Shown: in pieces, positions 1 to 64,000 of the stretch
Layout of the letters: each line of letters starts with the position of its first letter
Numbering within the stretch: position 1 is the first letter of the stretch
Assembly: GCF_022760925.1 (NCBI RefSeq)
Contig: NZ_JAKTNT010000012.1
Span: 21,948-85,947 of the forward strand
Source: Thermus hydrothermalis
GTDB taxonomy: Bacteria > Deinococcota > Deinococci > Deinococcales > Thermaceae
DNA: 64,000 nt
Direction: 5' to 3'
Position numbers and translations under genes: made by a program
Notes under the pieces: model-generated
Database searches by the model: none
Seen by the model: the letters and a program-made list of their open reading frames with translations, nothing else
Told to the model about the DNA's origin: nothing

Positions 1-370
1 GGACGGAAACGTCCGTGCCGTGGAGGGTATGCACCAGGGGGAAGCCCTTGCCGAAGGCCAGGTAGCTGGCGGCGGCGTGGGGGATGGCGTAGTGGGTGTG
101 GACCAGGTCCAGGCCGAGCCGCTTGGCCTCCCGCTCCAGGGTCCCGGCCAGGGAAAGGGTGTAAAGGGGTCCGGGGAAGACGGGGTAGAAGGGGAGGTCC
201 ACGGGGACGAAGGTGGCGGGGCTATCCTTGGGCAGGCGGAAGGGGCGCTCCGTGGCGAAGAGGAAGACCCGGTGGCCCATCCGGGCCAGGCGGTCGGCGA
301 GCTCCGTGGCCACGATGCCGCTTCCCCCAAGGCCCGGGTAGGCCACGAGGCCAAGCCTTAGGGGCTTCAC
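1..370 (-). CDS. bshA: BshA-type glycosyltransferase, N-terminal part (runs off the window)
   Basis: Only the first 123 codons are inside the window; the gene continues past base 1. Translation from the GTG at 370 gives the GT4 N-terminal Rossmann half with the signature YPGLGGSGIVATEL, then THYAIPHAAASYLA and TLHGTDVSV, which I recognise as N-acetyl-alpha-D-glucosaminyl L-malate synthase. BshA joins UDP-GlcNAc and L-malate in the first step of bacillithiol synthesis, the low-molecular-weight thiol of Thermus and Bacillus relatives. A purine-rich GGGAGG stretch lies 9 bases before the GTG. The family call rests on motifs; another GT4 enzyme is possible but less likely. Confidence 0.85.
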   Translation of the reverse strand, partial: MKPLRLGLVAYPGLGGSGIVATELADRLARMGHRVFLFATERPFRLPKDSPATFVPVDLPFYPVFPGPLYTLSLAGTLEREAKRLGLDLVHTHYAIPHAAASYLAFGKGFPLVHTLHGTDVSV

Positions 371-426
371 TCCTGGCGCCCTCCCTCTTTTTCCCCTACA
401 GGTCTAGAGAAAGCCATGCCCCAAGT

Positions 427-1533
427 CTAGCGCAGGGCCCGCGCCCCCAGGGCGAGGAAGAGGAGGTTGGCCCCCCAGGCCCCAAGCTCCGGGGGCAAAG
501 CCCCGATGCCGGCTAAGGAGCGCCCCAAGAAGAAGGCCCCGTAGTAGGCCAGGGCCAGGACCACGCTCATCCCCAAGGCGAGCCCCGTGCTCCGCCCGTA
601 GCGGAGGGCCATGGCCGCCGCCAGGAGGACCAGGACCAGGTTGGCGAGGGGCAGGGCCAGCTTGGAGTGGAACTCCAACCGGGCCCGCCAGCGCTCCAGG
701 GGGGCCAGGAAGGGGTCTTTGGCCTTCCGCCAGGCCTCGGAGAGGCTATCCTGGCCGAAGCTAAAGGTGTCGGCGTAGTCGGCGATGGCCCGGGCCCGGG
801 AGAGGTCGGACTCCACCTCCAAGAGGGACCCTTGGCTCACCACCTTGAAGACGCGGCGCACCTGGCCGAGGAGGTCCTTGGCCCCCTCGAGGCCCGGCAC
901 CTCCTTGAAGTCCACCCGGTAGTAGCGGTAGTGCTCCAAGGTGATGACCTTCCCCTCCCACCGGCCCCGCTCGGCGAAGAGGAAGGTGCCCTCCTCCCCT
1001 TGGAAGGCGGAGATCCTTACCCCCAGCATCTCCTTCCTCTCCCAGTCAAACCCGGAGAAGTAGAGGCTTTTCCCCTGGCCGATGGGGATCTGGAGCCCCA
1101 CGAGCCGGTGGAGCCCGGCCCCCTGGGTGTGGATCTCGTCCCACCAGGCCACCCGCACCCGCTCGTTGTAGTGGGGCACCACGGCCTCCTGGAGGTAAAG
1201 GGCTATCCCTGAGAGCACCGCTCCCACAGCCAGGAGGGGAAGGGCTGCCCGGTAAAGGGGGATCCCCCCCGAGAGGAGGGCGAACTGGGCCCCTTCCGCC
1301 GAAAGCCGCCCAAAGACCAGCACCGTGGTCACCACGGTGGCGATGGGGAAGACCTGCACCAAGACCCCGGGCACGTGGTAGGAAAGCCAGCGGAGGACCT
1401 TGACAAGGGGCACCCCCTCCAGCCACCGCGCCCCGGCGTAGAAGAAGCCGAAGAGGTAGACGGCGGTGAGGAAGGCCAGGGCCAGGAGGAGGACGGGTAG
1501 GCTTTCCCTTAGGACGTAGCGGTAAAGGGTCAT
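427..1533 (-). CDS. LptF/LptG-family permease (YjgP/YjgQ)
   Basis: This 368-residue membrane protein has the LptF/G plan: two N-terminal transmembrane segments in the first 65 residues, another near 95-115, a long soluble periplasmic domain (about 120-285) and three C-terminal transmembrane segments. In Gram-negatives, LptF and LptG form the inner-membrane permease that, with LptB, lifts lipopolysaccharide onto LptC. Thermus is not known to make classical LPS, so the cargo here is probably another outer-membrane lipid or glycolipid (inference). It overlaps the upstream LptA/C-like gene by 4 bases and the two must be co-transcribed. Only one LptF/G paralogue and no LptB-like ATPase are present in the window. 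Confidence 0.85.
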   Translation of the reverse strand: MTLYRYVLRESLPVLLLALAFLTAVYLFGFFYAGARWLEGVPLVKVLRWLSYHVPGVLVQVFPIATVVTTVLVFGRLSAEGAQFALLSGGIPLYRAALPLLAVGAVLSGIALYLQEAVVPHYNERVRVAWWDEIHTQGAGLHRLVGLQIPIGQGKSLYFSGFDWERKEMLGVRISAFQGEEGTFLFAERGRWEGKVITLEHYRYYRVDFKEVPGLEGAKDLLGQVRRVFKVVSQGSLLEVESDLSRARAIADYADTFSFGQDSLSEAWRKAKDPFLAPLERWRARLEFHSKLALPLANLVLVLLAAAMALRYGRSTGLALGMSVVLALAYYGAFFLGRSLAGIGALPPELGAWGANLLFLALGARALR

Positions 1534-2150
1534 GGGAGGCGGCTAGCGTAGGTGACGAGGCGCATGGCGCTCTCGGGTACCTTGGTGGAGGCCAAGACTT
1601 TCCCCCCTTGGAAGCGGAGGTGGAGCCGGGCGGAGGCCCCTTGCCCCTTGAGGGTGGCCTTGCCTTCCTGGTAGGTGAAGCTTCCCAAGGCCAAGGCTTC
1701 CCTCCCCTTCAGGTCCACCACCAGGGCTTCCGCCTGGAGCTTAGGGCTATCCGCCTGGACCTTGCCCTTGAGCACCACCACCTCCTCGGCGAAGAGGGCA
1801 AGGGCCCTTTCCGCCTTAAGCCCCTTGAAATCGGCGTTGCTAAAGGTGAGGCTTTGGAAGCGGGCTTCCTGCTTGGGGATGTCGTGCTCCAGGCTTTGGG
1901 CGAGGAAGGTTTCCTTGCTGGAGAGGAGCTCCACCCCCCTTGCCCGGACGAAGGCGCCCTCTTTGTACTCAATGTAGCTTCCCTTCAAGCGGAGTCCGTT
2001 TTCGTTGTCCACCAGGATCCCCCCCTGGGGAAGGGTGGTGACCCCGGTGTCCAGGTTGACCCGTTGGGGGCCGAAGGGCTCCACGCTGAAGGTGGCGAAG
2101 CGGGCAGCCAGGGCTACCCCGAGGAAAAGCAGGGGCCAAAGCCTTCTCAT
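1530..2150 (-). CDS. LptA/LptC-like periplasmic protein (OstA-fold)
   Basis: About 206 residues: a hydrophobic N-terminal signal or anchor, then repeated short beta strands of the kind seen in LptA/LptC/OstA_N jellyroll proteins (stretches such as DNENGLRLKGSYIEYKEGAF and QAEALVVDLKGREALALGSF). In the Lpt pathway such proteins form the periplasmic bridge. I chose the ATG at 2150 rather than the GTG at 2159 because a TAAAGT -10 box (complement of 2158-2163) ends exactly 7 bases before the ATG, the leaderless spacing seen throughout this window. The gene overlaps the LptF/G gene by 4 bases. The sequence is divergent, so whether it plays the LptA or LptC role is open. Confidence 0.72.
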   Translation of the reverse strand: MRRLWPLLFLGVALAARFATFSVEPFGPQRVNLDTGVTTLPQGGILVDNENGLRLKGSYIEYKEGAFVRARGVELLSSKETFLAQSLEHDIPKQEARFQSLTFSNADFKGLKAERALALFAEEVVVLKGKVQADSPKLQAEALVVDLKGREALALGSFTYQEGKATLKGQGASARLHLRFQGGKVLASTKVPESAMRLVTYASRLP

Positions 2151-2157
2151 GGAGGGC

Positions 2158-2163
2158 ACTTTA
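2158..2163 (-). promoter_or_regulatory. -10 box (TAAAGT) of the Lpt-like operon
   Basis: TAAAGT on the minus strand ends 7 bases before the ATG at 2150, so the transcript would start at or next to the start codon. A matching TAAAGT serves the divergent gene at 2215. No convincing -35 box was found. Confidence 0.5.
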
Positions 2164-2201
2164 CCCCATTTCCCTTAGGGTTGCGTTAGCTCCCTTTTTG
2201 G

Positions 2202-2214: not shown

Positions 2215-3648
2215 GTGCGCCTCCTTTCCCTAGGCCTCGCCCTTGCGCCCCTCTTCCCCTTCTTGGGCTGGCTTGCTCCCTTCTTCTTACCCGGCCTTCG
2301 CGGGCTTCCCCGTCCCATCTTGGGCCTGCTGGGGTTCTACGCCCTTTCCCTTCTCCTCCCAGCCCTTTTTGCTCCCGAGCCCTTGGCCTTTCCCATGGCC
2401 CTTTTCCGGGTGCTCTACGTCCTCGGCTTGGTGGGGGCGGGGGTAGTCTTGGCCAAGCGCTTCTCCTCGGAAGCCTTAGCCCCCCTGGGGTATGGCCTAG
2501 CCCTCCTTTACCTGACCGCTTTCGCCGCCACCTACCTCGTCTTTGGGGACAGGGCGGTGGGGGAGCGCCTGGCCCACCCCTTCCATAGCCCCGTGGGGCT
2601 CGGCCTCATGGGGGCGGTGGGCGTCCTCTTGGCCCTTTACCTGCGCTACCCTTGGCCCTTTCGCCTTCTCCTGGGCCTTCTTGGGGGGGCGGTCCTCCTC
2701 CTTTCCGGGAGCCGGGGGGGGATGCTGGGGCTTCTTTTGGGCGGGGCGGGGGGGCTTCTCTTCCGCCGGCGGGGGTTTTGGGCGTTGGGGCTTTCGGGGC
2801 TTCTCCTGGGGGTTGCCACTTTCCTGGACACCCCGGCCACGGAGCGGTTTTTCCAGGTCCAGCTTTCCGGGCGGGAAGCGCTTTGGCTTCGGGCGTACGA
2901 GGTTTACGCCGCCCACCCCTGGACCGGGGTGGGGCCCTACCTCCTAGGGGACTACCTTCGGGGAACCCTGTTTGGGGACTGCTTTCTCTTTTCCCTTTTG
3001 GAGGCGCGCGGCCTAATGTGCCCCGCCTGGCTTAAGCCTCTAGGGGGGTTCTGGCAGTTCGCCCATAACCACTTTTTGCAAGCCCTGGGGGAAAGTGGGC
3101 CCTTAGGGGCCTTGGGACTCCTTCTCCTCGTGGGGGGATTTTTGGCGGCGGCCTGGGGGGATGGGCTTCTTTTTTCCCTCCTCTTGGCCTACGCCGCCAT
3201 GGGCATGGTGGACAATCCCTTTAGCGTCCCAAGTCCCTTCCGCGGCGAGATTTTCTTCCTAGCGGGGGGGTTGGCCTTGGCCCAGGGACGCCTTGTCCTA
3301 AGCCGTACCTTGGGCCTTGCCGCAGGGGTGGCCCTCCTTTGGGCCCTTCCCTTTTGGCAACTTGCCCTCACGCCTTCCCCTTCGCCCCCCCGCCTGGCCT
3401 ACGCCGCCTTGGGACGGGAGGGGGGAGTGGTGCGCCTCGAGGGGGGCGAGGGCTACCGGGTCCAGGTCTGGCTTTGTGCCAAGGCCTGCCGCCGTGTGGG
3501 CTGGGAGTGGGATGGGGCTAAGCCCATCGCCTTTAGCCTTCCCAAGGACCTACCTCCCGGGTCCTACCGGCTACGGGTCCTGGTCTTTGCCCCCTCGCGC
3601 CTTGGGCAAAAGCCCCTTTATGCCCTGGAAAGGGAGGTGGTGCGGTGA
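2215..3648 (+). CDS. O-antigen ligase/polymerase-like membrane protein (Wzy_C family)
   Basis: A 477-residue polytopic protein with about ten hydrophobic segments. The region with SGSRGGMLG (near residue 164) and the later periplasmic loop HNHFLQALGESGPLG are the hallmarks of the Wzy/WaaL superfamily, which transfers or polymerises undecaprenyl-linked glycans on the outer face of the inner membrane. After the last membrane segment comes a soluble C-terminal domain of about 90 residues (from about 385) that is not part of the usual family core. The gene overlaps the next gene (CBM-like) by 4 bases (GTGA). It could be ligase or polymerase; sequence cannot decide. Confidence 0.8.
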   Translation: MRLLSLGLALAPLFPFLGWLAPFFLPGLRGLPRPILGLLGFYALSLLLPALFAPEPLAFPMALFRVLYVLGLVGAGVVLAKRFSSEALAPLGYGLALLYLTAFAATYLVFGDRAVGERLAHPFHSPVGLGLMGAVGVLLALYLRYPWPFRLLLGLLGGAVLLLSGSRGGMLGLLLGGAGGLLFRRRGFWALGLSGLLLGVATFLDTPATERFFQVQLSGREALWLRAYEVYAAHPWTGVGPYLLGDYLRGTLFGDCFLFSLLEARGLMCPAWLKPLGGFWQFAHNHFLQALGESGPLGALGLLLLVGGFLAAAWGDGLLFSLLLAYAAMGMVDNPFSVPSPFRGEIFFLAGGLALAQGRLVLSRTLGLAAGVALLWALPFWQLALTPSPSPPRLAYAALGREGGVVRLEGGEGYRVQVWLCAKACRRVGWEWDGAKPIAFSLPKDLPPGSYRLRVLVFAPSRLGQKPLYALEREVVR

Positions 3649-4052
3649 GGGGGGCTTGGTTCCTTGCCCTTTCCCTCCTTGGCGCTTTGGGGCTAGGGCT
3701 TTGGGGCCTACGGGAGGCTTTTGCCCTGCGTCCCTTGGCCCTTGGGCCCTGCCGGCCAGGCCCCTTGCCGGAGCGGGCGGAGCTTTGGACGAACGGGGTG
3801 GTGGAGATCCCCCTTTGCCGCAAGGCCACCTTGGTTCTCCGCCTCGAGGGCACCCCCGCCCAGGGTAAGGGGCCCCACGTCTTGGTGGCCGAGGGAGGCC
3901 GCCTCCTCTTTGAGGGGGAGGTTTTGGGCCTTGTGGAGCTCAGGTTCCGCACCTCGGGGGAAGGCATCGTGGCGGTGGCCTTCACCGATGACCTTTACCT
4001 TCCCCCGGAGGACCGGAACCTCTTCCTGCGGGGGCTCCTGGTGGAGCCTTAG
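3645..4052 (+). CDS. Small membrane-anchored protein with a carbohydrate-binding-module-like domain
   Basis: The product is 135 residues: an N-terminal hydrophobic segment (about 4-28) and a small beta-rich domain. The C-terminal end, FTDDLYLPPEDRNLFLRGLL, resembles the conserved F-N-D-x-Y-x-P-x-x-DRNLY-x-x-Y signature of the calcium-dependent xylan-binding module families (CBM36/60-like), with DxY and DRNL preserved. It starts inside the stop codon of the O-antigen-ligase-like gene, so translation is coupled. A role in holding the glycan substrate for the upstream enzyme is an inference. The domain call rests on one motif. Confidence 0.6.
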   Translation: MRGAWFLALSLLGALGLGLWGLREAFALRPLALGPCRPGPLPERAELWTNGVVEIPLCRKATLVLRLEGTPAQGKGPHVLVAEGGRLLFEGEVLGLVELRFRTSGEGIVAVAFTDDLYLPPEDRNLFLRGLLVEP

Positions 4053-4643: not shown

Positions 4644-6263
4644 GCGCAAGGAAAGGCCGAAGGTGAGGCTTAACCCCGGGGTTTCGTCGTACTGCCCCTG
4701 GAGGACGTTTTGCGCCCGAAGCTCGTAGGCGAAGCAGCCGTCGTAGAGGCGGAGGGTGAGGCCGTAGCGGGTAAGCCCTCCGCCCCCAAAACCCACCTCG
4801 GGGGCGAGCCAAAGGGCCTGGCAGCAATTGCGGTCCGGTAGGGGCATGGCGTAGGCGAAGCGGACCTCCTCCAGGCTTCCCCGCACGTAGGCCGCCCGGA
4901 GGCTTCCGAAGCGCTCGCTTTGGAAACGCCCTTCCAGGCGGTCTAGCCGGTTCCCCAGGGGGTTTTCCAGGGTGTAGCCGAGGCCCAGGGGGCCATAGGC
5001 CGCGTCCACGAAAAGCCTCTGGTATTCGTCCCGGTTCTCGTAGGTGAAGGGCGGGGTCTGGCCCAAAGGCTCAAGCCTCCCCCCGTACCCTGCCCGTAGG
5101 GTAAGTTCCCCGTCCCGGAAGCTCCCTTCCACGCTTCCTCCCAGGGCCAGGTAGGGGTCGTACCCGGCCCCGGGGTAGAGGGTGAAGAGCAGAGCGGGGG
5201 TGAGGGAGAGGCGAAAGGGGCCTTCCTGGAGGGTAGCCCGGTAGGAGGCTTCTAGCCCCAGGGTCCAGCCTTGGCTCCTTCCCGTTTCCGCATAGCGGAG
5301 GAAGGGGCTAAGGGTAAGGTCCTCCAGGCGGAAGGTGGGGCGGTAGCGGACCTCGAGGCGGGGGGTGTCGGCGTCGGGGGGCTTGGGGCTTGCGGCGAAG
5401 AAGAGGTCGCCGAAGAAGGCCCTGACCCCGGGGGCGTAGCCCAACTGGGCCTCCATGCCCCGGTCCCCCTCCCGGTAGCCCAGGAGGAGGGCTTTCTGCT
5501 CGGTTCCGAGGCCCGTGGCCAGGAGGGTAAAGCGCCTCTCCCACCGCCCAATCTCCTCCCCGGGCTTGGGGAGGGGGAAGCCCCTGACCCCCACGCTCCA
5601 ACCCCCGTCCGCTGTGCTCCCCAGGACCAGGGGGCTTTCCAGGGTCGGTTTGCGGTGGGCGTTGGCCCGGGCTTCCCCCAGAGGGATGTCCAGCGCCCAG
5701 AGGCCCAGGCGCGCTTCCCCCACGAGTTCGCCACTGGCCACGTCAAACCGGGCCTCCTCCATGGCGAGGCGCACGTCCTCCCCGCAGGGGCAGGGCGTGG
5801 CCAGAAACCCTTTGAGGATGGCTTCCTTTTGGTGGAAGCGGGCCTCTTCCGCCCTTACCCGGTAGGCGGGGGACTCGAGGAGGACCCTTTGGCCCAAGGG
5901 GGGGCTTTCCAGGAGGACGCTTTCCGCTTCTGCCCGAAGCCTTCCCTGGGCAAGGCGCACGCCCTTCAGGGTCTTGCCCTCCAGACGCTCCGCCTGGATA
6001 CGCCACCCCTCCGCCTCCCCGGTGAGGTTTTCGGCGAAAAACGCCTTGGCCTCCTCTCGGTAGCGGATGAGGGGGGTCTCGAGGAGAAGGCCTTCCCGTT
6101 CTAGGCAAGCGCGTCCCTCAAAAACGAGCTCCTCCCCATCGTAGGTGAGTTCTTCTCCGCCCAATAGTCCCTCTTCCGTTTCCAAGGTGTAGGGCCTTTG
6201 GGCGCAAGGGCCCGCCAAGGCCAAGCTTCCCCAAAGGGCTAAGAGGGGGAGTAGGCGCCTCAT
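4641..6263 (-). CDS. lptD: LptD-like outer-membrane assembly protein
   Basis: The protein has 540 residues. A signal peptide (1-17, ending LALAG) is followed by an OstA_N/LptA-like jellyroll region (about 25-170) and a long C-terminal region of alternating beta strands rich in Tyr, Leu and Arg (about 200-540), as expected of an outer-membrane barrel. LptD inserts LPS into the outer membrane in proteobacteria; here the cargo is unknown. It is shorter than E. coli LptD (about 780), carries CPCG and CC cysteine pairs that might form disulfides, and ends in Arg rather than the usual aromatic residue. A TATCGT box 7 bases before the ATG supports the start. Confidence 0.8.
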   Translation of the reverse strand: MRRLLPLLALWGSLALAGPCAQRPYTLETEEGLLGGEELTYDGEELVFEGRACLEREGLLLETPLIRYREEAKAFFAENLTGEAEGWRIQAERLEGKTLKGVRLAQGRLRAEAESVLLESPPLGQRVLLESPAYRVRAEEARFHQKEAILKGFLATPCPCGEDVRLAMEEARFDVASGELVGEARLGLWALDIPLGEARANAHRKPTLESPLVLGSTADGGWSVGVRGFPLPKPGEEIGRWERRFTLLATGLGTEQKALLLGYREGDRGMEAQLGYAPGVRAFFGDLFFAASPKPPDADTPRLEVRYRPTFRLEDLTLSPFLRYAETGRSQGWTLGLEASYRATLQEGPFRLSLTPALLFTLYPGAGYDPYLALGGSVEGSFRDGELTLRAGYGGRLEPLGQTPPFTYENRDEYQRLFVDAAYGPLGLGYTLENPLGNRLDRLEGRFQSERFGSLRAAYVRGSLEEVRFAYAMPLPDRNCCQALWLAPEVGFGGGGLTRYGLTLRLYDGCFAYELRAQNVLQGQYDETPGLSLTFGLSLR

Positions 6264-6270
6264 GGCTAAG

Positions 6271-6276
6271 ACGATA
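6271..6276 (-). promoter_or_regulatory. -10 box (TATCGT) of the lptD-like gene
   Basis: TATCGT on the minus strand ends 7 bases before the ATG at 6263; the transcript would be leaderless. It lies in the 18-base gap after the upstream gene. Confidence 0.45.
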
Positions 6277-6281
6277 CCAGA

Positions 6282-6770
6282 CTAGAGGGCCCAGCCCGAG
6301 GGCCTTGCCGGGTAGGGTGGGGCCTGGCCCCGCTTGACCTCTACCCGGAAAAACCCCGAGAGGGTGAGGGTGCCCCCCGTGGCCCGGGCTTGGGCCAGGG
6401 CCTGGTCCAGGAGGGTGCTTAGCTCTAGGAGGAAGCGGTCTTGTACCGCCTTCTCCACGGGCAAGGCGCCGAAGGTGAGGCAGGCGGGGTTTACCTTTGG
6501 GCAGTGGGGTTCTAGCCTGAGCCTCCCCCCAAGGAAGTAGAGCCGCCAGCTTCCCAGGTCCACCCGGTACCCGGCCCGCAGGTGGTCCTGGTACTGGAGG
6601 GCGAGCCTTTGCCAGAGCTCCCTGGCTTCTTTGCCCACGGGGCTTAGGGTGTACCGCCAGGCTGTGGCGCCCTCCTGGGTGAGGCTTTGGCTCCGGGTGA
6701 GCCGCCACTCTTGGGCGTGGGCCAAGGGGAGGAGGAGGAGTATGAGGAAGCTTGGCCCACCCCTTCGCAT
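6282..6770 (-). CDS. Secreted protein of unknown function
   Basis: The product is 162 residues with a clear signal peptide (FLILLLLPLAHAQ, cleavage after about residue 19). The mature part has no motif I recognise; it is about 140 residues, with two cysteines (PHC and PAC) that might pair. It precedes the LptD-like gene by 18 bases in the same direction, so a periplasmic role in outer-membrane assembly is plausible but only inferred. A GAAAGGG sequence directly before the ATG serves as ribosome-binding site. The longer overlapping reading frame on the same strand (6118-6780) has no signal peptide and unnatural composition and was discarded. Confidence 0.65.
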   Translation of the reverse strand: MRRGGPSFLILLLLPLAHAQEWRLTRSQSLTQEGATAWRYTLSPVGKEARELWQRLALQYQDHLRAGYRVDLGSWRLYFLGGRLRLEPHCPKVNPACLTFGALPVEKAVQDRFLLELSTLLDQALAQARATGGTLTLSGFFRVEVKRGQAPPYPARPSGWAL

Positions 6771-6819
6771 ACCCTTTCATTCTCCCTCCGTCGGCCTTGG
6801 TTCTCTGCCTCCCGAGGGT

Positions 6820-6850
6820 TTGTGGGGGAGGTCCTGTAAGGTGTTATAGT
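6820..6850 (+). promoter_or_regulatory. Possible promoter of the polysaccharide locus
   Basis: TTGTGG (6820-6825) and TATAGT (6845-6850) are 19 bases apart, in the 366-base gap between the divergent envelope genes and the flippase. A tiny frame of eight codons (6860-6886) follows, then the dehydrogenase remnant at 6921. I see no other structure in the gap. Confidence 0.35.
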
Positions 6851-6920
6851 TTGGTGGGGATGGCGCCTGTGTGGACATGTGTGTAAGGCGAGCGTGGATG
6901 CTTTTGGAGCGAGGTGGAGT

Positions 6921-7031
6921 GTGAAGAGGGTGGTGATAGTGGATGCTGGTTACGTGGGTCTTGCCACGAGGGTGGTCTTGGCCTACGTGGAGCACAGGTT
7001 AAGGCCCTTGGGGTCGTTTGGGGGGTGGTAA
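6921..7031 (+). pseudogene. Remnant of a UDP-glucose/GDP-mannose dehydrogenase-family gene
   Basis: A GTG-started frame of 36 codons reads KRVVIVDAGYVGLATRVVLA, very close to the NAD-binding N-terminus of nucleotide-sugar dehydrogenases (normally V-x-G-x-GYVGL-x-x-x-x-x-LA). It then loses similarity and stops at TAA 7029-7031. The normal length of the family is above 400 residues, so nearly the whole gene is gone. The first Gly of the GxGYVG nucleotide loop is replaced by Asp. It sits just upstream of the flippase in the same frame, which points to a deletion or recombination joint. The identification rests on about 22 residues. Confidence 0.65.
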
Positions 7032-7136
7032 CTCCTGCGTAGGCTAGGGCGAGAGCATCATCTTTTCGGAACGCTGGTTCGTTCAAAGACGGTTAAAAGT
7101 CTCTTTTACCTGTACCTGGTTCAGGTTGCGAATTAC

Positions 7137-8315
7137 TTGTTTCCCCTCCTTACTCTTCCATACTTGGCGCGGGTGTTGGGCCCAGATGGCTTTGGTGTGA
7201 TGACCTTAGGCCAGACTCTGGCGCTATACCTTCAACTCCTTGTGGAGTACGGCTTTTCTCTTTCCGGAACCCGGGAGGTGGCACGGCATCGGGAGGACCG
7301 GGAGGCAGTAGCTTGTATTGTTTCTGGGGTGATGGGGGCCAGGGTCTTCCTCCTGTTACCTGCGACCTTACTAGCTTTTCTGGCCCTTTATCTGCCGCCC
7401 TTTAAGGGAAGGGAGGACATAGTGGGAGCGGCGTTCTTTTGGGCGGTGGCCTGGGGGTTTAGCCCAGCATGGGTTTTTCAAGGTTTGGAGCACATGCGGG
7501 AGGTGGCCTTTTTAGAGGTGCTGACTCGAGGGCTAGCGGCCCTAGGTGTTTTCTTCCTGGTGCGCTCACCTGAACACGCTTATCTTCCCCTGATGCTGAA
7601 TGGGGTAGGGGCCGCGGTCGCTACGGCGATAGGGGTCGTGTGGTTGGGTAGGACCCTGCCCTTGCGTCCACCTTCTCTAAGAGGGGCTCTTAACTTTCTG
7701 GTTTTGGGCGGACGTTTCTTTTTTCCACGGTTGGTAGTTAGTTTTTATGCAGCTGCGAATCCTATAATTCTTAGTTTCTTTGCTTCTCCCTTACAAGTAG
7801 GCCTTTACGCAGGGGCGGAGCGGGTTGCAAAGGCAATGCTGGGTCTGATAGAGCCTTTTAATCGGCTTTTCTTCCCTCGGCTTTCTCATTTAGTTAGATA
7901 TGATCCGAGGATAGCCGGGCTTCTAGCTGTGCGGGTTCTAGTCGTTATGGGGTGTCTCGCTGGAGTGGGCGCATTGTTCTTGTGGGTTTTTTCTCCTTGG
8001 TTAGTGCGGTTTCTTCTAGGGACAAGCTATGAGGAATCGGTCCCAATCGTGAAAGTCCTTGTGCTACTCCTACCGCTTATTGCGATGTCTAACCTTTTAG
8101 GAATACAGATGCTGTCTTGGGGGATGGATCGCTCCTTCAATACTGTTATCCTTTCAGCGGGGTTGCTGAACATCGTTTTAACGACAGCGTTAAGCGCTTT
8201 GGGAGGGCCTTTGGGCTTAGCTTGGGCAGCGGTTTTGGTAGAAGCTTGGGTGGTGGGTGGGATGGTTTGGTACCTCCATAGGCATAGGCGGCTTCCCTGG
8301 GAGGTTGCCCAATGA
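7137..8315 (+). CDS. Polysaccharide flippase (Wzx/MATE-like, polysaccharide_synt family)
   Basis: A membrane protein of 392 residues from the TTG at 7137, with about 12 hydrophobic segments and the typical flippase opening TLPYLARVLGPDGFGVMTLG. Wzx proteins move undecaprenyl-linked glycan repeats across the inner membrane. Family similarity extends upstream of the TTG: codons 7083-7136 read SKTVKSLFYLYLVQVANY, which matches the usual first helix. No ATG, GTG or TTG exists between the in-frame TAA at 7029 and 7137; CTG codons at 7035, 7074, 7110 and 7116 are the only near-starts. Either CTG 7074 is the start, or the N-terminus was damaged. The gene is AT-richer than its neighbours. Confidence 0.8.
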   Translation: MFPLLTLPYLARVLGPDGFGVMTLGQTLALYLQLLVEYGFSLSGTREVARHREDREAVACIVSGVMGARVFLLLPATLLAFLALYLPPFKGREDIVGAAFFWAVAWGFSPAWVFQGLEHMREVAFLEVLTRGLAALGVFFLVRSPEHAYLPLMLNGVGAAVATAIGVVWLGRTLPLRPPSLRGALNFLVLGGRFFFPRLVVSFYAAANPIILSFFASPLQVGLYAGAERVAKAMLGLIEPFNRLFFPRLSHLVRYDPRIAGLLAVRVLVVMGCLAGVGALFLWVFSPWLVRFLLGTSYEESVPIVKVLVLLLPLIAMSNLLGIQMLSWGMDRSFNTVILSAGLLNIVLTTALSALGGPLGLAWAAVLVEAWVVGGMVWYLHRHRRLPWEVAQ

Positions 8316-10340: not shown

Positions 10341-10512
10341 ATACGAGCGTTCGTTGCAGTTTGCTGCAATATTTGAGGGATTGAGCGGAAGGACATATTT
10401 TGCGCTTCAGCTTGAAGTTGGCTCACGTGGGGAGTCAAGCTTTTGGGAGAAGACAGTACTGCTTTGCTTCCGTGCCTTGAGGGGGCTTCGTGGGTTATGG
10501 ATAAGCCTCTAG
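10312..10512 (+). CDS. Small open frame of uncertain reality between two glycosyltransferases
   Basis: An ATG-started frame of 66 codons bridges the 156-base gap between the two GT2 genes, overlapping 29 bases of the first and 16 of the second. It has no motif I recognise, no good ribosome-binding site and an ordinary, non-repetitive composition. It may be a remnant of a gene lost during rearrangement of the locus, or chance. Confidence 0.2.
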   Translation: MRKFLVSIDEYERSLQFAAIFEGLSGRTYFALQLEVGSRGESSFWEKTVLLCFRALRGLRGLWISL

Positions 10513-11381: not shown

Positions 11382-11502
11382 CTAGATGAGGCTTGCTTGA
11401 GTTGTAGGTAACATGTTTCTTTGTCGGTGTTGAGATGTGGGGGTGTGTGGGTGTTTGCTGTGCGTTGTCTTAGGATCGCCAAAGGTGCAGAAGGGGTGGT
11501 AG

Positions 11503-13744: not shown

Positions 13745-13745
13745 C

Positions 13746-14987: not shown

Positions 14988-14996
14988 ACTTTGGGT

Positions 14997-15809: not shown

Positions 15810-15921
15810 GGTAGAGGAGGGTGAGATATCCGGGGGGGCTTATTTCTGCCTGGAAGGCTTTTTGGTGCGACACACATGGCCTTGTTTATGGGCAGGATGG
15901 GTCGCTTCCGGAAGAGGGGGT

Positions 15922-15950: not shown

Positions 15951-15963
15951 CCCCCTTGGACGC

Positions 15964-16037: not shown

Positions 16038-16070
16038 AATTTTTTTCATAGATTTTTCGCACCTCTCCGG

Positions 16071-16076: not shown

Positions 16077-16082
16077 GGCCCC

Positions 16083-55256: not shown

Positions 55257-56492
55257 TTAGCGGCCCAGGCCCACCTGGTCGGCGATGGCCTGGGCGGCGT
55301 TGGCCGCCGCCTGCGGGCTCTTGGTCTGGAGGAAGATCTCCATCACCGTGCCGAACTGGCTCATGAAGCTCTCGGGCGCCACGGCCCCGTGGACCAAGGA
55401 GCCCACGATGCGGTTGGACTTCCAGTCCCGCATGGCCGCCTGGCCGTAGGCGTTGTACTTGGCGGGGTCGGAGTCCAGGCGGGCGGCGATGGAGCCCTTG
55501 AGGGGGTTGAAGGTGTCCTGCCCCTCCTTGGAGCCCACGAGCCTAAGCCAGTTGAGGGCGTTTTGGCGGTTCTTGGCCCCCTTGGGCAGGCCGAAGGAGT
55601 CGGAGAGCATCATGAAGACCCCCTGGGTGCCAGGGGAGGGCGCCCAGGCGAAGTCGGTGCCGGGGCGGAGCTTCAGGGTGGTGGCCATGTAGCCCGCCGC
55701 CCAGTCGCCCATGATGTTGAAGGCGGCCTGGCCCTGGACCACCCGGTCCACCGCCTGTTGCCAGGAGAGGCCAGCGGCGTCCTTGTTGGCGCAGTCCAGC
55801 ACCTTGCCGAAGGTTTCCCAGACCGCCACCGCCTTGGGGTCGGTGAACTTCAGCTTGCCGTTCCAGAGGCTATTCCAGCCGTCCGCCCCCAGCATGGCCA
55901 GGGCCACGCTTTCCCACAGGTGCTGCTGCGTCCAGTTCTCGCCCAGGGCCAAGGGGGCTTGGAGGCCTTTGCGCTTAAGGGTTTCGCAGGTGGCGAGGAA
56001 CTCGGCCCAGGTCCTGGGCGGGTTCACCCCCCACTCCCTTAGCTTCGCCGGGATGTACCACATGACGTTGGAGCGGTGGATGTTCACCGGCACGCTCCAG
56101 ATGCCCCCCTTGTAGGAGATGAGGTCAATGAGCCCCTTGGGGAAGGCCTGGAGCCAGCCCTCCTGGCGGAAGAGGGAGGTGAGGTCCTCCATGCGGTTCG
56201 CCACCACCCAGGTGCCGATGAGCTCCATGCCGGCGTGGACCTGGAAGGTGTCCGGAGGGTCGCCCCCCAGCATCCGGGTCTTCAGAACCGCCTTGGCGTT
56301 GACCCCGGCCCCCCCGGTGACCGTGGCGTTGATGACCTCCACGCCCGGGTACTTCTGCTTGTAGAGCCGGATGAGGGCCTCGAGGGCCGGCCCCTCGTCC
56401 CCCGCCCACCAAGAGAAGATCTCCAGCTTGCCCGTCTGGGCCAGGGCGCTAAGCCCCAAAGCCATGCCGAGTACCCAAAGCCACTTCCTCAT
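55257..56492 (-). CDS. Glucose-type ABC transporter substrate-binding protein
   Basis: 411 residues from ATG 56492, which follows GGAGGTAGGT; the longer open frame begins in non-conserved sequence. The signal peptide is [19 protein letters not shown]. The mature protein reads [40 protein letters not shown] and [11 protein letters not shown], nearly as in the T. thermophilus glucose/galactose-binding protein. Trp residues in IFSWW and [11 protein letters not shown] line the sugar site. It delivers hexose to the two permeases downstream. Its first 44 bases overlap the end of the ROK gene. Confidence 0.95.
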
Positions 56493-58917: not shown

Positions 58918-59946
58918 ATGACCCTCTCCTTGCCCCTTGCCCTCCGGCGAAGCCTCGTCTTCGCCTGGCTCCTCGCCCTTTTGGCCTTGGCCTTGGTCCT
59001 GGGGCTCGCCTTGGGGGCGGTGGCGGTGCCCCCAGGGGAGGTGGTGCGGGCCCTTTTGGGCCTCGAGGCCAACCCCATCGTCACCGAGCTCCGCCTTCCC
59101 CGGGTCCTCGGGGGGATGCTGGTGGGGGCGGCCTTGGGGGTGGCGGGGGCTGCCTTCCAGGGGCTTTTCCGCAACCCTTTGGCCGACCCCTACCTCATGG
59201 GGGCCGCCTCGGGGGCGGCCTTTGGCGTGACCCTCTTGGCCGTCCTCCTTGGGGGGCTTTCCCCCGCCTTCGCCCAGCACGTCGTCTTCCAGGGCCTCCC
59301 CCTTTCCGCCACCCTCTTTGGCTTCCTCGGGGCCCTCTTCGCCACCCTCCTCACCCTGGTCCTCGCCGGCGGGGTGGCGAGGACAGGGGAGTTGGTCCTG
59401 GCGGGGGTGGTGGTGGGGAGCGTGCTCACGGGGCTTACCACCTACCTCATGCTCCAGGACGCCGACCGGGTGCGGGCAGTCTTCGCCTATACCCTGGGGA
59501 ACCTGGCCTTCCTGGGGTGGCCCTCGGTGAAGGCGCTGGCCCTTTTCCTCCTCCTTGCCCTGCCCCCCCTTCTCCTCCTGGGCCGGGTGCTGAATGCCTT
59601 GCAACTGGGGGAGGAGGTGGCGCAAAGCCTGGGGCTTCCCCTAAGCACCCTAAAGCTCCTCCTCCTCGCCGCAGCGAGCCTCCTCACCGCCGCCAGCGTG
59701 GCCCAGGCGGGGATCATCGGCTTCGTGGGGCTTGTCACCCCGCACGCCCTGAGGCGCCTTTTGGGGGAGGACTACCGGGTCCTCCTCCCGGCGAGCGCCC
59801 TGGGCGGAGCTGCCCTTCTGGCCCTGGCCGACCTCCTCGCCCGCACCCTCACGCGGCCCGCCGAGCTACCCGTGGGCGTGGTCACCACCCTTTTAGGAGG
59901 GCCCTTCTTCCTCTACCTCCTTTGGAGGCGCCGTGGACGGGCTTGA
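58918..59946 (+). CDS. btuC: Cobalamin ABC transporter permease
   Basis: 342 residues with about ten membrane segments. FecCD/BtuC family segments: LRLPRVLGGMLVGAALGVAG (early), FQGLFRNPLADPYLMGAASG and VGLVTPHALRRLLGEDYRVL (cytoplasmic coupling loop with VTPH). Corrinoids and iron-siderophores share this family; the riboswitch decides for B12. It starts 3 bases after btuF and ends 14 bases inside btuD. Confidence 0.95.
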   Translation: MTLSLPLALRRSLVFAWLLALLALALVLGLALGAVAVPPGEVVRALLGLEANPIVTELRLPRVLGGMLVGAALGVAGAAFQGLFRNPLADPYLMGAASGAAFGVTLLAVLLGGLSPAFAQHVVFQGLPLSATLFGFLGALFATLLTLVLAGGVARTGELVLAGVVVGSVLTGLTTYLMLQDADRVRAVFAYTLGNLAFLGWPSVKALALFLLLALPPLLLLGRVLNALQLGEEVAQSLGLPLSTLKLLLLAAASLLTAASVAQAGIIGFVGLVTPHALRRLLGEDYRVLLPASALGGAALLALADLLARTLTRPAELPVGVVTTLLGGPFFLYLLWRRRGRA

Positions 59947-62071: not shown

Positions 62072-62074
62072 GGC

Positions 62075-63235
62075 ATGGATTTTAGCGGACTGGATGGGCT
62101 TTTCCGCCGTATGACGGAGGAGGGCTTCCTGCCCGGGGCGGTGGTCCTGGTGGCCCGGGAGGGGGAGGTGGTCTTCCAGGGGACCTACGGCTTTCTGGAC
62201 CCGGAGAGGGGCCTGCCCATGCGGGAAGACGCCCTTTTCAGGGTCTACTCCATGACCAAGCCCTGGGTTTCCGCCCTGGCCCTCTCCCTGGTGGAGGAGG
62301 GCGCTCTAAGCCTTCTGGACCCCGTGGAGAAGTACCTGCCTGGGTTTGGGGCCTTGCGGGTGGGGCGGGAGGTGGGCGGCGAGGTGCGGGAGGAGCCCCT
62401 GCGGGCCCCCGTCACCGTCTACGAGCTTTTGCGCCATACCGCCGGCTTCACCTACGGGGTCTTCTTCGCCTCCCCCGTGAAAAGGCTTTACCTCGAGGCC
62501 GGCGTGGACCGGTTTGACCTAAGCCGGGAGGCCTTTTTGGAGCGGCTTGCCGCTTTGCCCCTCCGCTTCCAACCGGGGGAGGCTTTTGAGTACGGGCTTT
62601 CCACGGACGTGCTGGGCCACCTCCTCGAGGCCGCCACGGGGAAAAGCCTGGCGGACCTGCTTGAGGAGAGGGTCTTTGCGCCTTTGGGCATGCGGGATTC
62701 GGGCTTCCAGGCCAAGGACCCCGTTCGCCTCGCCAAGCCCTTCCCCAAGGACCCGGAGACGGGCCGGCGCATCGCCCTCATCCCCGTGGAGGCCCCGCCC
62801 CCCCGCTACGCCGGGGGGATGGGCGGGGTGAGCACCGCTTCCGATTACCTGCGCTTCCTGGAGGCCTTGCGCACGGGGAAAGGCCTCCTCCACCCGCGCC
62901 TGGCCCGGCTCATGGCCGAGGACCACCTGGGCCCCCTCTACCCCGAGGGCCTGAAGCGGGGCCCCGAGTACCTCCCGGGCCCCGGGTACGGGTTTGGGCT
63001 GGGGGTGGCGGTCCGCCTGGGGGCGGGCCTTTCCCCGGGAAGCCCGGGGGAGTTCAACTGGGCGGGGTTTGGCGGCACCTACTTCTTCGTGGACCCCTCC
63101 TTGGGCCTAAGCGCCCTCTACATGAGCCAGGCCCCCAACCTGCTTTCCGTTTTGGAGCCCTCGAGGGCCCTCCATTCCCGCCTGGGGGCCAGGCTCCAGC
63201 ACGCCTTCCGCACCCAGGTCTACCGGGCCCTTTAG
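62075..63235 (+). CDS. Serine beta-lactamase-like hydrolase (class C family)
   Basis: 386 residues, cytoplasmic (no signal peptide). The catalytic SxxK is SMTK (Ser59, Lys62) in VYSMTKPWVSALAL; the Tyr motif is in FEYGLSTDVLGHLLE, where the usual YxN reads YGLS; and YAGGMGGVSTASDYLRFLEA follows. Family members are esterases, carboxylesterases or D-aminopeptidases, rarely true beta-lactamases. The substrate is unknown. A group of small hydrophobic residues near the end (WAGFGGTYFFVDPSLGLSAL) is the HTG/K-T-G-equivalent region, here GFGGTYF. Confidence 0.9.
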   Translation: MDFSGLDGLFRRMTEEGFLPGAVVLVAREGEVVFQGTYGFLDPERGLPMREDALFRVYSMTKPWVSALALSLVEEGALSLLDPVEKYLPGFGALRVGREVGGEVREEPLRAPVTVYELLRHTAGFTYGVFFASPVKRLYLEAGVDRFDLSREAFLERLAALPLRFQPGEAFEYGLSTDVLGHLLEAATGKSLADLLEERVFAPLGMRDSGFQAKDPVRLAKPFPKDPETGRRIALIPVEAPPPRYAGGMGGVSTASDYLRFLEALRTGKGLLHPRLARLMAEDHLGPLYPEGLKRGPEYLPGPGYGFGLGVAVRLGAGLSPGSPGEFNWAGFGGTYFFVDPSLGLSALYMSQAPNLLSVLEPSRALHSRLGARLQHAFRTQVYRAL

Positions 63236-63251
63236 GGTGTTGCTCCGCAGG

Positions 63252-63917
63252 TCAATCATCCCCGCCCGCCTCCACCCCCACGGCGGCGGCGAGGTCGGGG
63301 GGTAGGAGAAAGACCTTGTTCCCCAGGGCCACCCGCACGCCGTTTTGGCGCTCCAGGACCCGGAGGCGGGCCCCGGGGGTAAGCCCGAGCCGGGCCAGGA
63401 GGTGGAGCGTCCCCGGGTCTTGGACCAGGGCCCGCACCACCCGCGCCTCCCCGAGCGGGGCCTCGGTCAAGGGTGTGGCGGGCGCTTCCGGCAAGGCGAG
63501 GTCCTGGGTGGGGATGGGGTCCCCGTGGGGGTCAAAGGGGGGGTGGCCCAAGAGCTCGGCGATGCGGGCCTCAAAGGCCTCGCTGATCACGTGCTCTAGC
63601 CGCTCCGCTTCCTCGTGAACCTCCTCCCAGCCGTAGCCCAGGGCCTGGTGGAGGTAGGCCTCGAGGAGCCGGTGGTGGCGCAGGACCTCGAGGGCTACTC
63701 TCCGCCCAGCAAGGGTCAGGCTTGCTCCTTGGTAAGGCTGGTGTTCTACCAGACCTAGAAGGGCGAGCTTCTTGAGCATTTCGGTAGCCGATGGGGGGCG
63801 AACCCCCATCCGGCTTGCCAAGGCTTGGGTGGAAACCGGGGCTTGGCCTTCGAGCTCCAAGAGAAGGAGGTTCTTTAGGTAATCTTCCTGGGCTTCGGTA
63901 AGGGGGGGGCGCTGCAT
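63252..63917 (-). CDS. DtxR/MntR-family metal-dependent regulator
   Basis: 221 residues. The winged helix (LLLLELEGQAPVSTQALASR, then PPSATEMLKKLALLGLVEHQ) is followed by the dimerisation and metal-binding domain, with HHRLLEAYLHQALGYGWEEV, HEEAERLEHVISEAFEARI and HPPFDPHGDPIP, and by a C-terminal FeoA/SH3-like domain (about 150-221). The His/Glu/Asp ligands of primary and ancillary metal sites are in place. It represses metal-uptake genes in response to Mn(II) or Fe(II). A TATACT box lies on the minus strand at 63945-63950. No metal transporter is inside the window. Confidence 0.93.
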   Translation of the reverse strand: MQRPPLTEAQEDYLKNLLLLELEGQAPVSTQALASRMGVRPPSATEMLKKLALLGLVEHQPYQGASLTLAGRRVALEVLRHHRLLEAYLHQALGYGWEEVHEEAERLEHVISEAFEARIAELLGHPPFDPHGDPIPTQDLALPEAPATPLTEAPLGEARVVRALVQDPGTLHLLARLGLTPGARLRVLERQNGVRVALGNKVFLLPPDLAAAVGVEAGGDD

Positions 63918-63944
63918 AGGAACCGGGATCGCTTAGCCAGGCCT

Positions 63945-63981
63945 AGTATAACCCAAGTTGCTACCCAGCCATCTTCTGGGT
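63945..63981. promoter_or_regulatory. Promoter and inverted repeat upstream of the DtxR-family gene
   Basis: TATACT on the minus strand (63945-63950) is the likely -10 box of the regulator gene. A perfect inverted repeat, ACCCAG-N7-CTGGGT (63963-63981), lies in the divergent direction and may be an operator or hairpin. Confidence 0.4.
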
Positions 63982-63991
63982 CAGGAGACTG

Positions 63992-64000
63992 ATGTTATGG
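63992..64000 (+). CDS. Possible start of a divergent gene (runs off the window)
   Basis: ATG at 63992 follows AGGAG (63983-63987) by 4 bases. Only three codons are visible, so no product can be named. Divergent partners of DtxR-family regulators are often metal transporters. Confidence 0.25.

What the first reader, a model, noticed from the sequence alone, without database searches (positions are those of the whole stretch)
1..64000. Palindromic octamer CCTCGAGG occurs about 40 times, far more than expected
Scanning by eye I counted about 49 CTCGAG hexamers, about 41 of them extended to CCTCGAGG. With two-thirds GC and independent bases about 2-3 octamers are expected in 64 kb. They fall in genes on both strands and in different families, mostly reading Leu-Glu (CTC GAG). 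Other Leu codons before GAG are also frequent, so codon bias alone does not explain the flanking C and G. This resembles HIP1 in cyanobacteria: a widely spread palindrome of unknown role, perhaps linked to methylation, repair or recombination.
Basis: partly seen in the sequence, partly recalled or inferred. Interest (0 to 1): 0.72.

Follow-up and report, generated by a model that had tools for sequence, protein, structure and literature searches.

The report
Thermus's highly repeated CCTCGAGG palindrome
All 27 Thermus genomes searched carry 1,231 to 2,158 copies of the DNA palindrome CCTCGAGG, at sites better conserved than matched codons and, in most chromosome stretches tested, spaced more evenly than chance while other TCGA sites are depleted, and it likely serves as a genome-wide landmark that a core enzyme is predicted to methylate, much like the HIP1 repeats of cyanobacteria.

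Summary
The count is right: 42 CCTCGAGG in the window, 2-5 expected from models of order 0 to 3, 1,647 in the genome. All 27 Thermus genomes have 1,231-2,158. In genes of a 164-kb sample of this genome, non-octamer TCGA is 18 against about 518 expected from synonymous shuffling; the octamer is 123 against 71. The codon pair CTC-GAG is at 1.64x with C..G flanks and 0.06x with others. The octamer's CTC is conserved better than other CTC before G (0.61 against 0.21), though not better than CTC before non-G codons (0.63). Spacing is more even than chance in 6 of 8 stretches. Outside Thermus the hexamer CTCGAG is iterated in much of the phylum, up to 28,178 copies. A TaqI nuclease gene is found in 8 of 27 Thermus genomes, its methyltransferase family in all 27, at one conserved locus in the 24 compared. 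Best reading: a HIP-type element, maintained by selection or drive, likely methylated. Reader protein and function are unproven; no methyltransferase family searched follows CTCGAG through the phylum.

The parts
885..892 (.). CCTCGAGG
   Evidence: in gene 427-1533(-), Leu-Glu
3435..3442 (.). CCTCGAGG
   Evidence: in frame Leu-Glu
3842..3849 (.). CCTCGAGG
   Evidence: in frame Leu-Glu
5351..5358 (.). CCTCGAGG
   Evidence: in frame Leu-Glu, last before the gap
5359..16700 (.). octamer-free stretch (foreign-looking island), contrast to the rest
   Evidence: 0 octamers in 11.3 kb, GC 58.0%, GC3 0.75 (5 called genes) against 0.87 downstream
16701..16708 (.). CCTCGAGG
   Evidence: in frame Leu-Glu
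17370..17377 (.). CCTCGAGG
   Evidence: in frame Leu-Glu
18817..18824 (.). CCTCGAGG
   Evidence: in frame Leu-Glu
20985..20992 (.). CCTCGAGG
   Evidence: outside my gene calls
21282..21289 (.). CCTCGAGG
   Evidence: outside my gene calls
22485..22492 (.). CCTCGAGG
   Evidence: in frame Leu-Glu
23819..23826 (.). CCTCGAGG
   Evidence: in frame Leu-Glu
24807..24814 (.). CCTCGAGG
   Evidence: in frame Leu-Glu
28950..28957 (.). CCTCGAGG
   Evidence: in frame Leu-Glu
29781..29788 (.). CCTCGAGG
   Evidence: in frame Leu-Glu
30408..30415 (.). CCTCGAGG
   Evidence: in frame Leu-Glu
30930..30937 (.). CCTCGAGG
   Evidence: in frame Leu-Glu
33370..33377 (.). CCTCGAGG
   Evidence: in frame Leu-Glu
34922..34929 (.). 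CCTCGAGG
   Evidence: in frame Leu-Glu
35195..35202 (.). CCTCGAGG
   Evidence: in frame Leu-Glu
37256..37263 (.). CCTCGAGG
   Evidence: in frame Leu-Glu, gene on -
37526..37533 (.). CCTCGAGG
   Evidence: in frame Leu-Glu, gene on -
39464..39471 (.). CCTCGAGG
   Evidence: in frame Leu-Glu
40254..40261 (.). CCTCGAGG
   Evidence: in frame Leu-Glu
40917..40924 (.). CCTCGAGG
   Evidence: in frame Leu-Glu (gene with RecJ domains)
41799..41806 (.). CCTCGAGG
   Evidence: in frame Leu-Glu (gene with RecJ domains)
43123..43130 (.). CCTCGAGG
   Evidence: in frame Leu-Glu
43748..43755 (.). CCTCGAGG
   Evidence: in frame Leu-Glu (gene with valyl-tRNA synthetase domains)
46589..46596 (.). CCTCGAGG
   Evidence: in frame Leu-Glu
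47531..47538 (.). CCTCGAGG
   Evidence: in frame Leu-Glu
47877..47884 (.). CCTCGAGG
   Evidence: in frame Leu-Glu
49165..49172 (.). CCTCGAGG
   Evidence: in frame Leu-Glu
51282..51289 (.). CCTCGAGG
   Evidence: outside my gene calls
52177..52184 (.). CCTCGAGG
   Evidence: in a gene, other phase
53188..53195 (.). CCTCGAGG
   Evidence: in frame Leu-Glu
54404..54411 (.). CCTCGAGG
   Evidence: in frame Leu-Glu, gene on -
56378..56385 (.). CCTCGAGG
   Evidence: in frame Leu-Glu, gene on -
59061..59068 (.). CCTCGAGG
   Evidence: in frame Leu-Glu
62491..62498 (.). CCTCGAGG
   Evidence: in frame Leu-Glu
62623..62630 (.). CCTCGAGG
   Evidence: in frame Leu-Glu
63159..63166 (.). CCTCGAGG
   Evidence: in a gene, other phase
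63659..63666 (.). CCTCGAGG
   Evidence: in frame Leu-Glu, gene on -
63686..63693 (.). CCTCGAGG
   Evidence: in frame Leu-Glu, gene on -

Best explanation
CCTCGAGG is the Thermus form of a CTCGAG palindrome that is iterated through much of its phylum, and it likely works as a landmark, one per one to two kilobases, that a core M.TaqI-like methyltransferase is predicted to methylate and that an unidentified host factor would read. Shown: the octamer is retained better than matched codons and at even spacing although its core TCGA is removed from most other places, and a TaqI-type nuclease gene is present or absent at one chromosomal locus where the M.TaqI-like methyltransferase was found in every Thermus compared. 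Inferred: restriction of TCGA (present or past TaqI systems) makes each TCGA a liability, so the octamers persist because losing them costs more, or because some process keeps restoring them. Inferred: where few other TCGA remain, adenine methylation of TCGA would fall mostly on octamers and so form a regularly spaced mark. What reads the mark (strand choice in repair, chromosome organisation or replication control) is not determined; my guess is a dimeric DNA-binding protein, because the site is a perfect palindrome of fixed length.
For: Genus-wide presence at similar density over very different TCGA backgrounds: octamer 535-938 per Mb in 27 of 27 genomes, while non-octamer TCGA ranges from 0.00 to 0.79 of expectation in 24 sampled genomes and is lower where the TaqI nuclease gene is found (mean 0.087, n=6, against 0.333, n=18, P=0.006). 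Flank dependence at a fixed codon pair in 7 of 7 genomes (six Thermus and G071): observed/expected 1.06-3.56 with C..G flanks, 0.04-0.35 without. Retention of the CTC codon against the matched control in two separate regions: 0.606 [0.566-0.650] against 0.213 [0.190-0.235], and 0.561 against 0.301. Even spacing: P below 0.05 in 6 of 8 chromosome stretches (0.087 and 0.093 in the other two) and in none for four control words. Core methyltransferase: PF12950 match in 27 of 27, 57.8-80.5% identical to the window genome's copy in the 23 other Thermus loci compared, at least one shared neighbour gene in 24 of 24 Thermus loci and in the sister genus G071. The window genome's copy matches M.TaqI structures at E=3e-208. 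In the extreme genome G033 CTCGAG lies in all three phases and also outside my gene calls (6.6 per kb outside, 5.95 inside).
Against: 67 of 111 genomes of the phylum have no PF12950 match, yet most such genomes still have CTCGAG above its reversed control, so this methyltransferase is not the origin of the pattern. By presence and absence, read by eye, none of five families searched follows CTCGAG in the phylum (PF12950 44 of 111, PF01555 78, PF00145 29, PF02086 49, PF07669 81). The specificity of the orphan M.TaqI-like clade was not tested. The octamer's CTC is not kept better than CTC before codons that do not start with G (0.606 against 0.626; 0.561 against 0.687): what is shown is that the loss seen at other CTC-G junctions is absent here. 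CCTGGAGG is also 1.5-2.2x over synonymous shuffling, so the octamer's own 1.5-2x (3.6x in G008) is weak evidence alone. In G025, which has the lowest octamer density and the highest TCGA, the octamer is not significantly above shuffling (36 against 29.9). Spacing is not even on pTT27 (CV 0.94, 0.95), over the whole window with its gap (CV 1.18), or for CTCGAG in three of four non-Thermus stretches. In 4 of 20 pairwise comparisons (G007, G016, G025, G026) retention was no better than in the matched control.
Confidence: 0.4

Rival explanations
1. Drive without benefit: a host process such as biased uptake and recombination of DNA (as for the uptake sequences of Haemophilus and Neisseria) or sequence-biased repair keeps creating the palindrome, and the copies do nothing else.
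For: Density near 0.7 per kb and even spacing recall uptake sequences (recalled, not tested). Resident replicons have it: pTT27 megaplasmids 37-55 per 50 kb (150 against 112 over shuffling), a conjugative Oceanithermus plasmid (CTCGAG 133 against 34.8), a Meiothermus phage annotated with Mu-like prophage genes (86 against 11.0), while phage P23-45 has 0 in 50 kb and four Thermus phages pooled show no excess over synonymous shuffling (20 against 19.4). In some genomes CTCGAG reaches 6-7.7 per kb, more than an ordinary binding site would seem to need.
Against: Thermus DNA uptake is reported as not sequence-specific (recalled). One-base neighbours of CTCGAG are not consistently depleted, as conversion towards the motif would predict. 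Drive must also overcome the removal of TCGA.
Confidence: 0.25
2. A host DNA-binding protein (nucleoid or segregation factor) uses the unmethylated palindrome; methylation is irrelevant.
For: CTCGAG is iterated in genera with quite different methyltransferase sets; even spacing and retention in Thermus fit architecture as well as methylation.
Against: No candidate protein identified. The flank preference differs between genera (mixed flanks in the Meiothermus-like genera, CC..GG in Thermus), which one conserved protein would not obviously do.
Confidence: 0.2
3. Leftover: Thermus codon usage makes Leu-Glu as CTC-GAG, TCGA avoidance removes most TCGA, and CCTCGAGG is merely a context that escapes restriction.
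For: 37 of 42 window copies are Leu-Glu in frame; synonymous shuffling reduces the excess from about 13x to 1.7x; the octamer's CTC is kept only as well as an ordinary CTC before non-G codons.
Against: A leftover should sit at or below codon expectation, but the octamer is above it significantly in 6 of 7 genomes, and 2.8-14x above the CTC-before-G baseline. Ten of eleven non-Thermus genomes tested have CTCGAG at 1.5-11.5x over shuffling, G030 (0.61x) being the exception. Even spacing is unexplained.
Confidence: 0.1

Closest known systems
HIP1 and alternate HIPs of cyanobacteria (Elhai 2015, PMC4390886; abstract and outline, section 3.3, the first of two parts of section 3.4, and passages seen)
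   Same: GC-rich palindrome iterated over the whole genome, hundreds to thousands per Mb, lineage-specific sequences, suspected tie to methyltransferases that recognise the site or an inner part of it.
   Different: Core is CTCGAG/TCGA, not CGATCG/GATC; another phylum; here the core is otherwise purged from the genome; the conserved methyltransferase does not explain the relatives. The paper's main text holds neither the word Thermus nor Deinococcus.
TaqI restriction-modification (TCGA) of Thermus (PMC5587805, passages seen)
   Same: The window's genome carries a TaqI nuclease match (PF09573) beside its methyltransferase; TCGA is avoided.
   Different: Avoidance cannot make an excess; 19 of 27 genomes have the methyltransferase family without a detected nuclease.
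Orphan CTCGAG methyltransferase of Nocardia (Blow 2016, PMC4752239, passages seen)
   Same: A conserved methyltransferase without nuclease that targets CTCGAG; shows that CTCGAG can be an epigenetic mark.
   Different: There motif clusters near dnaA are reported; here the motif is spread genome-wide. Homology to Deinococcota enzymes was not tested.
DNA uptake sequences of Haemophilus and Neisseria (recalled)
   Same: Similar density and even spacing.
   Different: Those direct uptake; Thermus uptake is reported as non-specific (recalled). Uptake was not tested.

Membership tests
HIP-type highly iterated palindrome | A palindrome in large excess over the whole genome and in genes of both strands | tested here: met
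   1,647 in the genome, 27 of 27 Thermus genomes; window copies in genes of both strands
HIP-type highly iterated palindrome | Excess not explained by codons | tested here: met
   Flank dependence at a fixed codon pair in 7 of 7 genomes; octamer over shuffling significant in 6 of 7
HIP-type highly iterated palindrome | A methyltransferase for the site or its core in the same genome | tested here: inconclusive
   PF12950 match in 27 of 27 Thermus; orphan clade's specificity unknown; no family searched follows CTCGAG in the phylum
HIP1 itself | Sequence GCGATCGC | tested here: not met
   Sequence is CCTCGAGG
TaqI restriction avoidance | TCGA depleted, more so with the nuclease gene | tested here: met
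   0.087 against 0.333 of expectation, P=0.006; explains the purge, not the octamer
DNA uptake sequence | DNA with the motif is taken up preferentially | not testable with these tools
   needs uptake assays
DNA uptake sequence | Even spacing, and absence from phages that do not reside in the chromosome | tested here: inconclusive
   Even on the chromosome in 6 of 8 stretches, not on pTT27; P23-45 0, phiFa 3, TSP4 6, Riverbug 16 copies in the parts fetched; the phages' life styles were not established (P23-45 and phiFa each have a XerD-like integrase annotated)

The most novel reading that the evidence does not exclude
CTCGAG is an ancient genome-wide mark of the Deinococcota, perhaps the most heavily iterated palindrome of any bacterium, up to 28,178 copies (nearly 4% of the genome) in one family while its letters read backwards occur only 4-15 times, and Thermus has narrowed it to CCTCGAGG because TaqI-type restriction made every other TCGA a liability, so that its adenine methylation has become one regularly spaced mark every one to two kilobases used by the cell to organise or repair its chromosome.
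Probability: 0.3. Interest if true: 0.88.

Novelty: new variant of a known kind. Interest (0 to 1): 0.72.

Why it matters
The role of HIP1 is still open (PMC4390886 says that the relationship of HIPs to their methyltransferases remains a mystery). Thermus offers a second, independent case with workable genetics, natural transformation and small genomes (recalled), and with closely related strains with and without the TaqI nuclease at the same locus. The opposition between TCGA removal and octamer retention gives a natural measure of how strongly each copy is maintained, and the extreme CTCGAG genomes elsewhere in the phylum give a dose series. If the mark model holds, it would join restriction, orphan methylation and chromosome maintenance in one system.

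Tried and rejected
Methyltransferase families as the common cause across the phylum: PF12950, PF01555, PF00145, PF02086 and PF07669 were each searched in 111 genomes; by eye none follows CTCGAG density (I made no formal correlation, the answers cut their lists, and PF02384 was not searched in genomes). Two further candidates remain open. One is a DPPF-type methyltransferase with a strong match (E below 1e-60) in 21 of 22 genomes of the genera g2-g4 (G066 is weak) and in one Thermus, G003. The other is a roughly 550-residue Eco57I-like methyltransferase read in three Meiothermus-like and two f5 genomes (its distribution was not mapped). Of six plasmid regions read with relatives of it, five have a protein of 296-343 residues behind it, none of these five with a Pfam or NCBIfam match; in the sixth a second N-6 methylase follows. 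Its specificity stays unknown.

Very-short-patch or conversion-type bias: one-off neighbours of CTCGAG are not consistently depleted. Longer consensus: in 1,526 flanks (both strands) G is at -2 in 58% and at -1 in 46%; I did not separate this from codon effects. Preference for a part of the gene: none (24, 22, 28, 25, 24 over fifths). Periodicity in the f3 genomes: only a codon period of three (172, 93, 95). Solved structure for the 550-residue enzyme: no match at E 0.001.

Literature: ten searches of the held open library listed no paper that I recognised, from titles and abstract starts, as describing an iterated CTCGAG or CCTCGAGG in Thermus or its relatives; subscription papers are not covered. 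Of 1,472 papers holding the letters CCTCGAGG 20 were listed; their subjects suggest cloning primers, and I opened none of them. PMC3303625 on the Thermus genome signature has no TCGA, CTCGAG or palindrome in its main text.

Weak points: genes were called by my own simple caller (81-90% coding), so 'outside genes' includes missed genes. Relatedness is not removed; the bootstrap is over sites only, each genome serving as reference in turn. Genome sizes other than G000's are rounded. TCGA ratios come from samples of 20 kb in most genomes. Three Thermus genomes (G005, G006, G012) had first contigs too short, and three (G010, G020, G024) were not in the locus comparison. Of the 80 loci I counted 38.

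Full report
WHAT IS THERE. The window holds 42 CCTCGAGG, 49 CTCGAG and only 53 TCGA. Independent bases predict 2.3 octamers, Markov models of order 1 to 3 predict 3.4 to 4.9; higher orders absorb the word (15.7 at order 4, 38.8 at order 5). The palindromic octamer next in number, CCCCGGGG, is at 21 against 14.5 (order 3). The window is part of a 2.36-Mb genome; the best named relatives of its valyl-tRNA synthetase are Thermus records (94% for Thermus sp. 2.9). The whole genome has 1,647 copies; the same letters read backwards give 317. All 27 genomes of the genus have 1,231 to 2,158 copies against 200 to 587 for the control.

THE CORE IS PURGED, THE OCTAMER IS NOT. In 164 kb of this genome, 138 of 167 TCGA are in CCTCGAGG. 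A dinucleotide model expects 331 TCGA; 29 lie outside the octamer. In genes, synonymous shuffling (protein and codon usage kept, 60 shuffles) expects 588 TCGA and 71 octamers; observed are 141 and 123, so non-octamer TCGA is 18 against about 518. The matched test holds the codon pair fixed. CTC-GAG preceded by C and followed by G is at 1.64, 1.80, 1.79, 3.56, 1.48, 1.75 and 1.06 of expectation in G000, G013, G005, G008, G018, G071 and G025. CTC-GAG with any other flank is at 0.06, 0.04, 0.05, 0.21, 0.05, 0.35 and 0.07. CTC before other G-starting codons, the baseline for a CpG at the codon boundary, is at 0.58, 0.56, 0.21, 0.25, 0.31, 0.39 and 0.37. Against my reading: CCTGGAGG is also 1.5 to 2.2 times its shuffled expectation, so a moderate excess alone would mean little, and in G025 the octamer's excess is not significant. 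Not every Thermus is purged: non-octamer TCGA is 0.00 to 0.79 of expectation in the 24 genomes sampled.

RETENTION. I aligned orthologous genes of two regions, using every genome in turn as reference and dropping gene pairs above 93% nucleotide identity. Where Leu and the next residue are kept, the CTC codon of an octamer stays CTC in 0.606 [0.566-0.650] of comparisons (221 site-references). CTC before other G-starting codons stays in 0.213 [0.190-0.235] (433), CTC before codons not starting with G in 0.626 (3,620), and CTC in other TCGA in 0.360 (10 sites). The second region gives 0.561 [0.494-0.627] (85) against 0.301 [0.257-0.348] (190), 0.687 (1,616) and 0.200 (3). So the octamer escapes the loss seen at other CTC-G junctions, but is not kept better than an ordinary CTC. 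A first pass with the window alone as reference gave 0.71 against 0.30; per genome the octamer was no better than the G control in 4 of 20 (G007, G016, G025, G026).

SPACING IS EVEN ON THE CHROMOSOME. In contiguous stretches the coefficient of variation of gaps is 0.77 (G000), 0.72 (G013), 0.83 (G005), 0.67 (G008), 0.78 (G018), 0.86 (G071), 0.65 (G025) and 0.74 (window from 16.7 kb), against 0.96-0.99 for random placement; P is below 0.05 in six of the eight, 0.087 and 0.093 in G005 and G071. Four control words (CCTGGAGG, CCCCGAGG, GAGCTC, CCATGG, the first two with their reverse complements) in the same stretches never reached P 0.05. Exceptions: the whole window with its 11-kb gap (CV 1.18), 100 kb each of the two pTT27 megaplasmids (CV 0.94 and 0.95), and CTCGAG outside Thermus, which is not even in G035, G033 and G065 but is in G032.

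WHO HAS IT. In 111 genomes of the phylum the octamer exceeds its reversed control in 109; the exceptions are G030 and G073. Outside Thermus the flanks are mixed and the hexamer itself is iterated: CTCGAG exceeds GAGCTC in 81 of 84 non-Thermus genomes (exceptions G030, G045, G047) and in 14 of 27 Thermus genomes. Counts reach 28,178 in the 4.5-Mb genome G033 (control 9), 27,159 in G032 (control 15) and 14,690 in the 1.9-Mb incomplete G028 (control 2). Against synonymous shuffling CTCGAG is at 1.5 to 11.5 in ten of eleven non-Thermus genomes tested and 0.61 in G030. The three f3 genomes are at 7.6 to 11.5, in all three phases, and in G033 and G032 as dense outside my gene calls as inside. Part of the low control in f3 is a general avoidance of palindromes (GGCC 0 against 93 in 20 kb of G031). 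A 50-kb piece of Deinococcus radiodurans plasmid MP1 shows no excess (CTCGAG 8 against 18.8). Among 16 loci from other phyla, CTCGAG is below expectation in 14; Selenomonas FOBRC6 (20 against 12.4) and a Sumerlaeota (5 against 4.6) are the exceptions (which took 38 of the 80 loci). Cyanobacterial HIP1 is given as 300-2,700 per million (PMC4390886, passage); hexamer and octamer densities are not directly comparable.

MOBILE DNA. The two pTT27 megaplasmids have 37-55 octamers per 50 kb (150 against 112 expected from shuffling, pooled); a conjugative Oceanithermus plasmid has CTCGAG at 133 against 34.8. A Meiothermus phage annotated with Mu-like prophage genes has 86 against 11.0. Thermus phage parts: P23-45 0 octamers in 50 kb, phiFa 3 in 40 kb, TSP4 6 in 40 kb, Riverbug (annotated excisionase) 16 in 30 kb; pooled they do not exceed synonymous expectation (20 against 19.4) while TCGA is depleted (193 against 566), though not in phiFa (175 against 143 by dinucleotides). 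The window itself has an octamer-free stretch, 5,359-16,700, of 58% GC and GC3 0.75, which looks like acquired DNA.

RESTRICTION AND METHYLATION. The TaqI nuclease family PF09573 is found in 8 of 27 Thermus genomes, G000 included; in G006 as two pieces on different contigs. The methyltransferase family PF12950 is found in 27 of 27. I compared 26 loci: 24 Thermus, G071 and G035. Each of the 24 Thermus loci shares at least one neighbouring gene family with the others, as does G071; in G025 only the upstream neighbours are shared, G006 and G016 show one each on short loci, and G035 shares none. The nuclease gene lies directly behind the methyltransferase in the loci held. In the tree, G000 groups with five other nuclease carriers and G021 (96/90), and 17 copies without nuclease form another clade (100/100), with G071 next to it. 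G000 has the nuclease and G011 of the same species does not. The window genome's enzyme matches M.TaqI in solved structures over nearly its whole length. Non-octamer TCGA averages 0.087 of expectation with the nuclease gene (n=6) and 0.333 without (n=18), P=0.006; octamer density is slightly higher with it, 802 against 714 per Mb (P=0.045). So restriction explains much of the purge but not the octamer.

WHAT TRACKS CTCGAG. None of the five families searched follows it through the phylum by eye, and the specificity of two further candidates is unknown. A conserved orphan methyltransferase for CTCGAG is known in Nocardia (PMC4752239, passages). The trans-acting factor in Deinococcota therefore remains unidentified.

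INTERPRETATION. Shown: iteration beyond codon bias, retention above the matched control, even spacing on the chromosome, purge of the same core elsewhere in most Thermus, and a core methyltransferase family at a fixed locus. Inferred: the octamer is methylated and read. The leftover model fails on excess and spacing. Drive by uptake or repair remains the strongest rival, because prophage-like DNA and plasmids carry the motif and the extreme genomes carry more of it than a binding function should need.

Noticed in passing
window 5359-16700: 11.3-kb stretch without any octamer, GC 58%, GC3 0.75; CTCGAG occurs six times there, never as CCTCGAGG. Looks like recently acquired DNA.
   Followed up: partly
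G031 (L073) and G029 (L072): Genomes of f3 and f2 avoid several other palindromes (GGCC 0 against 93 in L073; CCGG 1 against 46 in L072) and have 6 and 5 matches to the cytosine-5 methyltransferase family.
   Followed up: partly
L080, L083, L085 (genera g2-g4): A DPPF-type adenine methyltransferase is a strong match in 21 of 22 genomes of g2-g4; in L080 and L085 it stands behind what reads like trpA (recalled, not searched). Target unknown.
   Followed up: partly
G000:C14 and G011:C3 (L245, L226): Two genomes of one species differ at the same locus: one has TaqI nuclease and methyltransferase, the other only a methyltransferase of the orphan clade.
   Followed up: yes
whole G000 sample: Other word biases in 164 kb: CGCG at 0.29 of expectation and CCTTAAGG 17 copies at 4.2x, TGCGCA 60 against 20.8.
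   Followed up: no
L223 26062-27388: Meiothermus phage MMP17 is annotated with a very-short-patch-repair endonuclease next to a D12-class adenine methyltransferase.
   Followed up: no
G030, G105, G110: Low-CTCGAG genomes inside the phylum (683, 509 and 606 copies); useful contrasts for finding the factor behind the motif.
   Followed up: no
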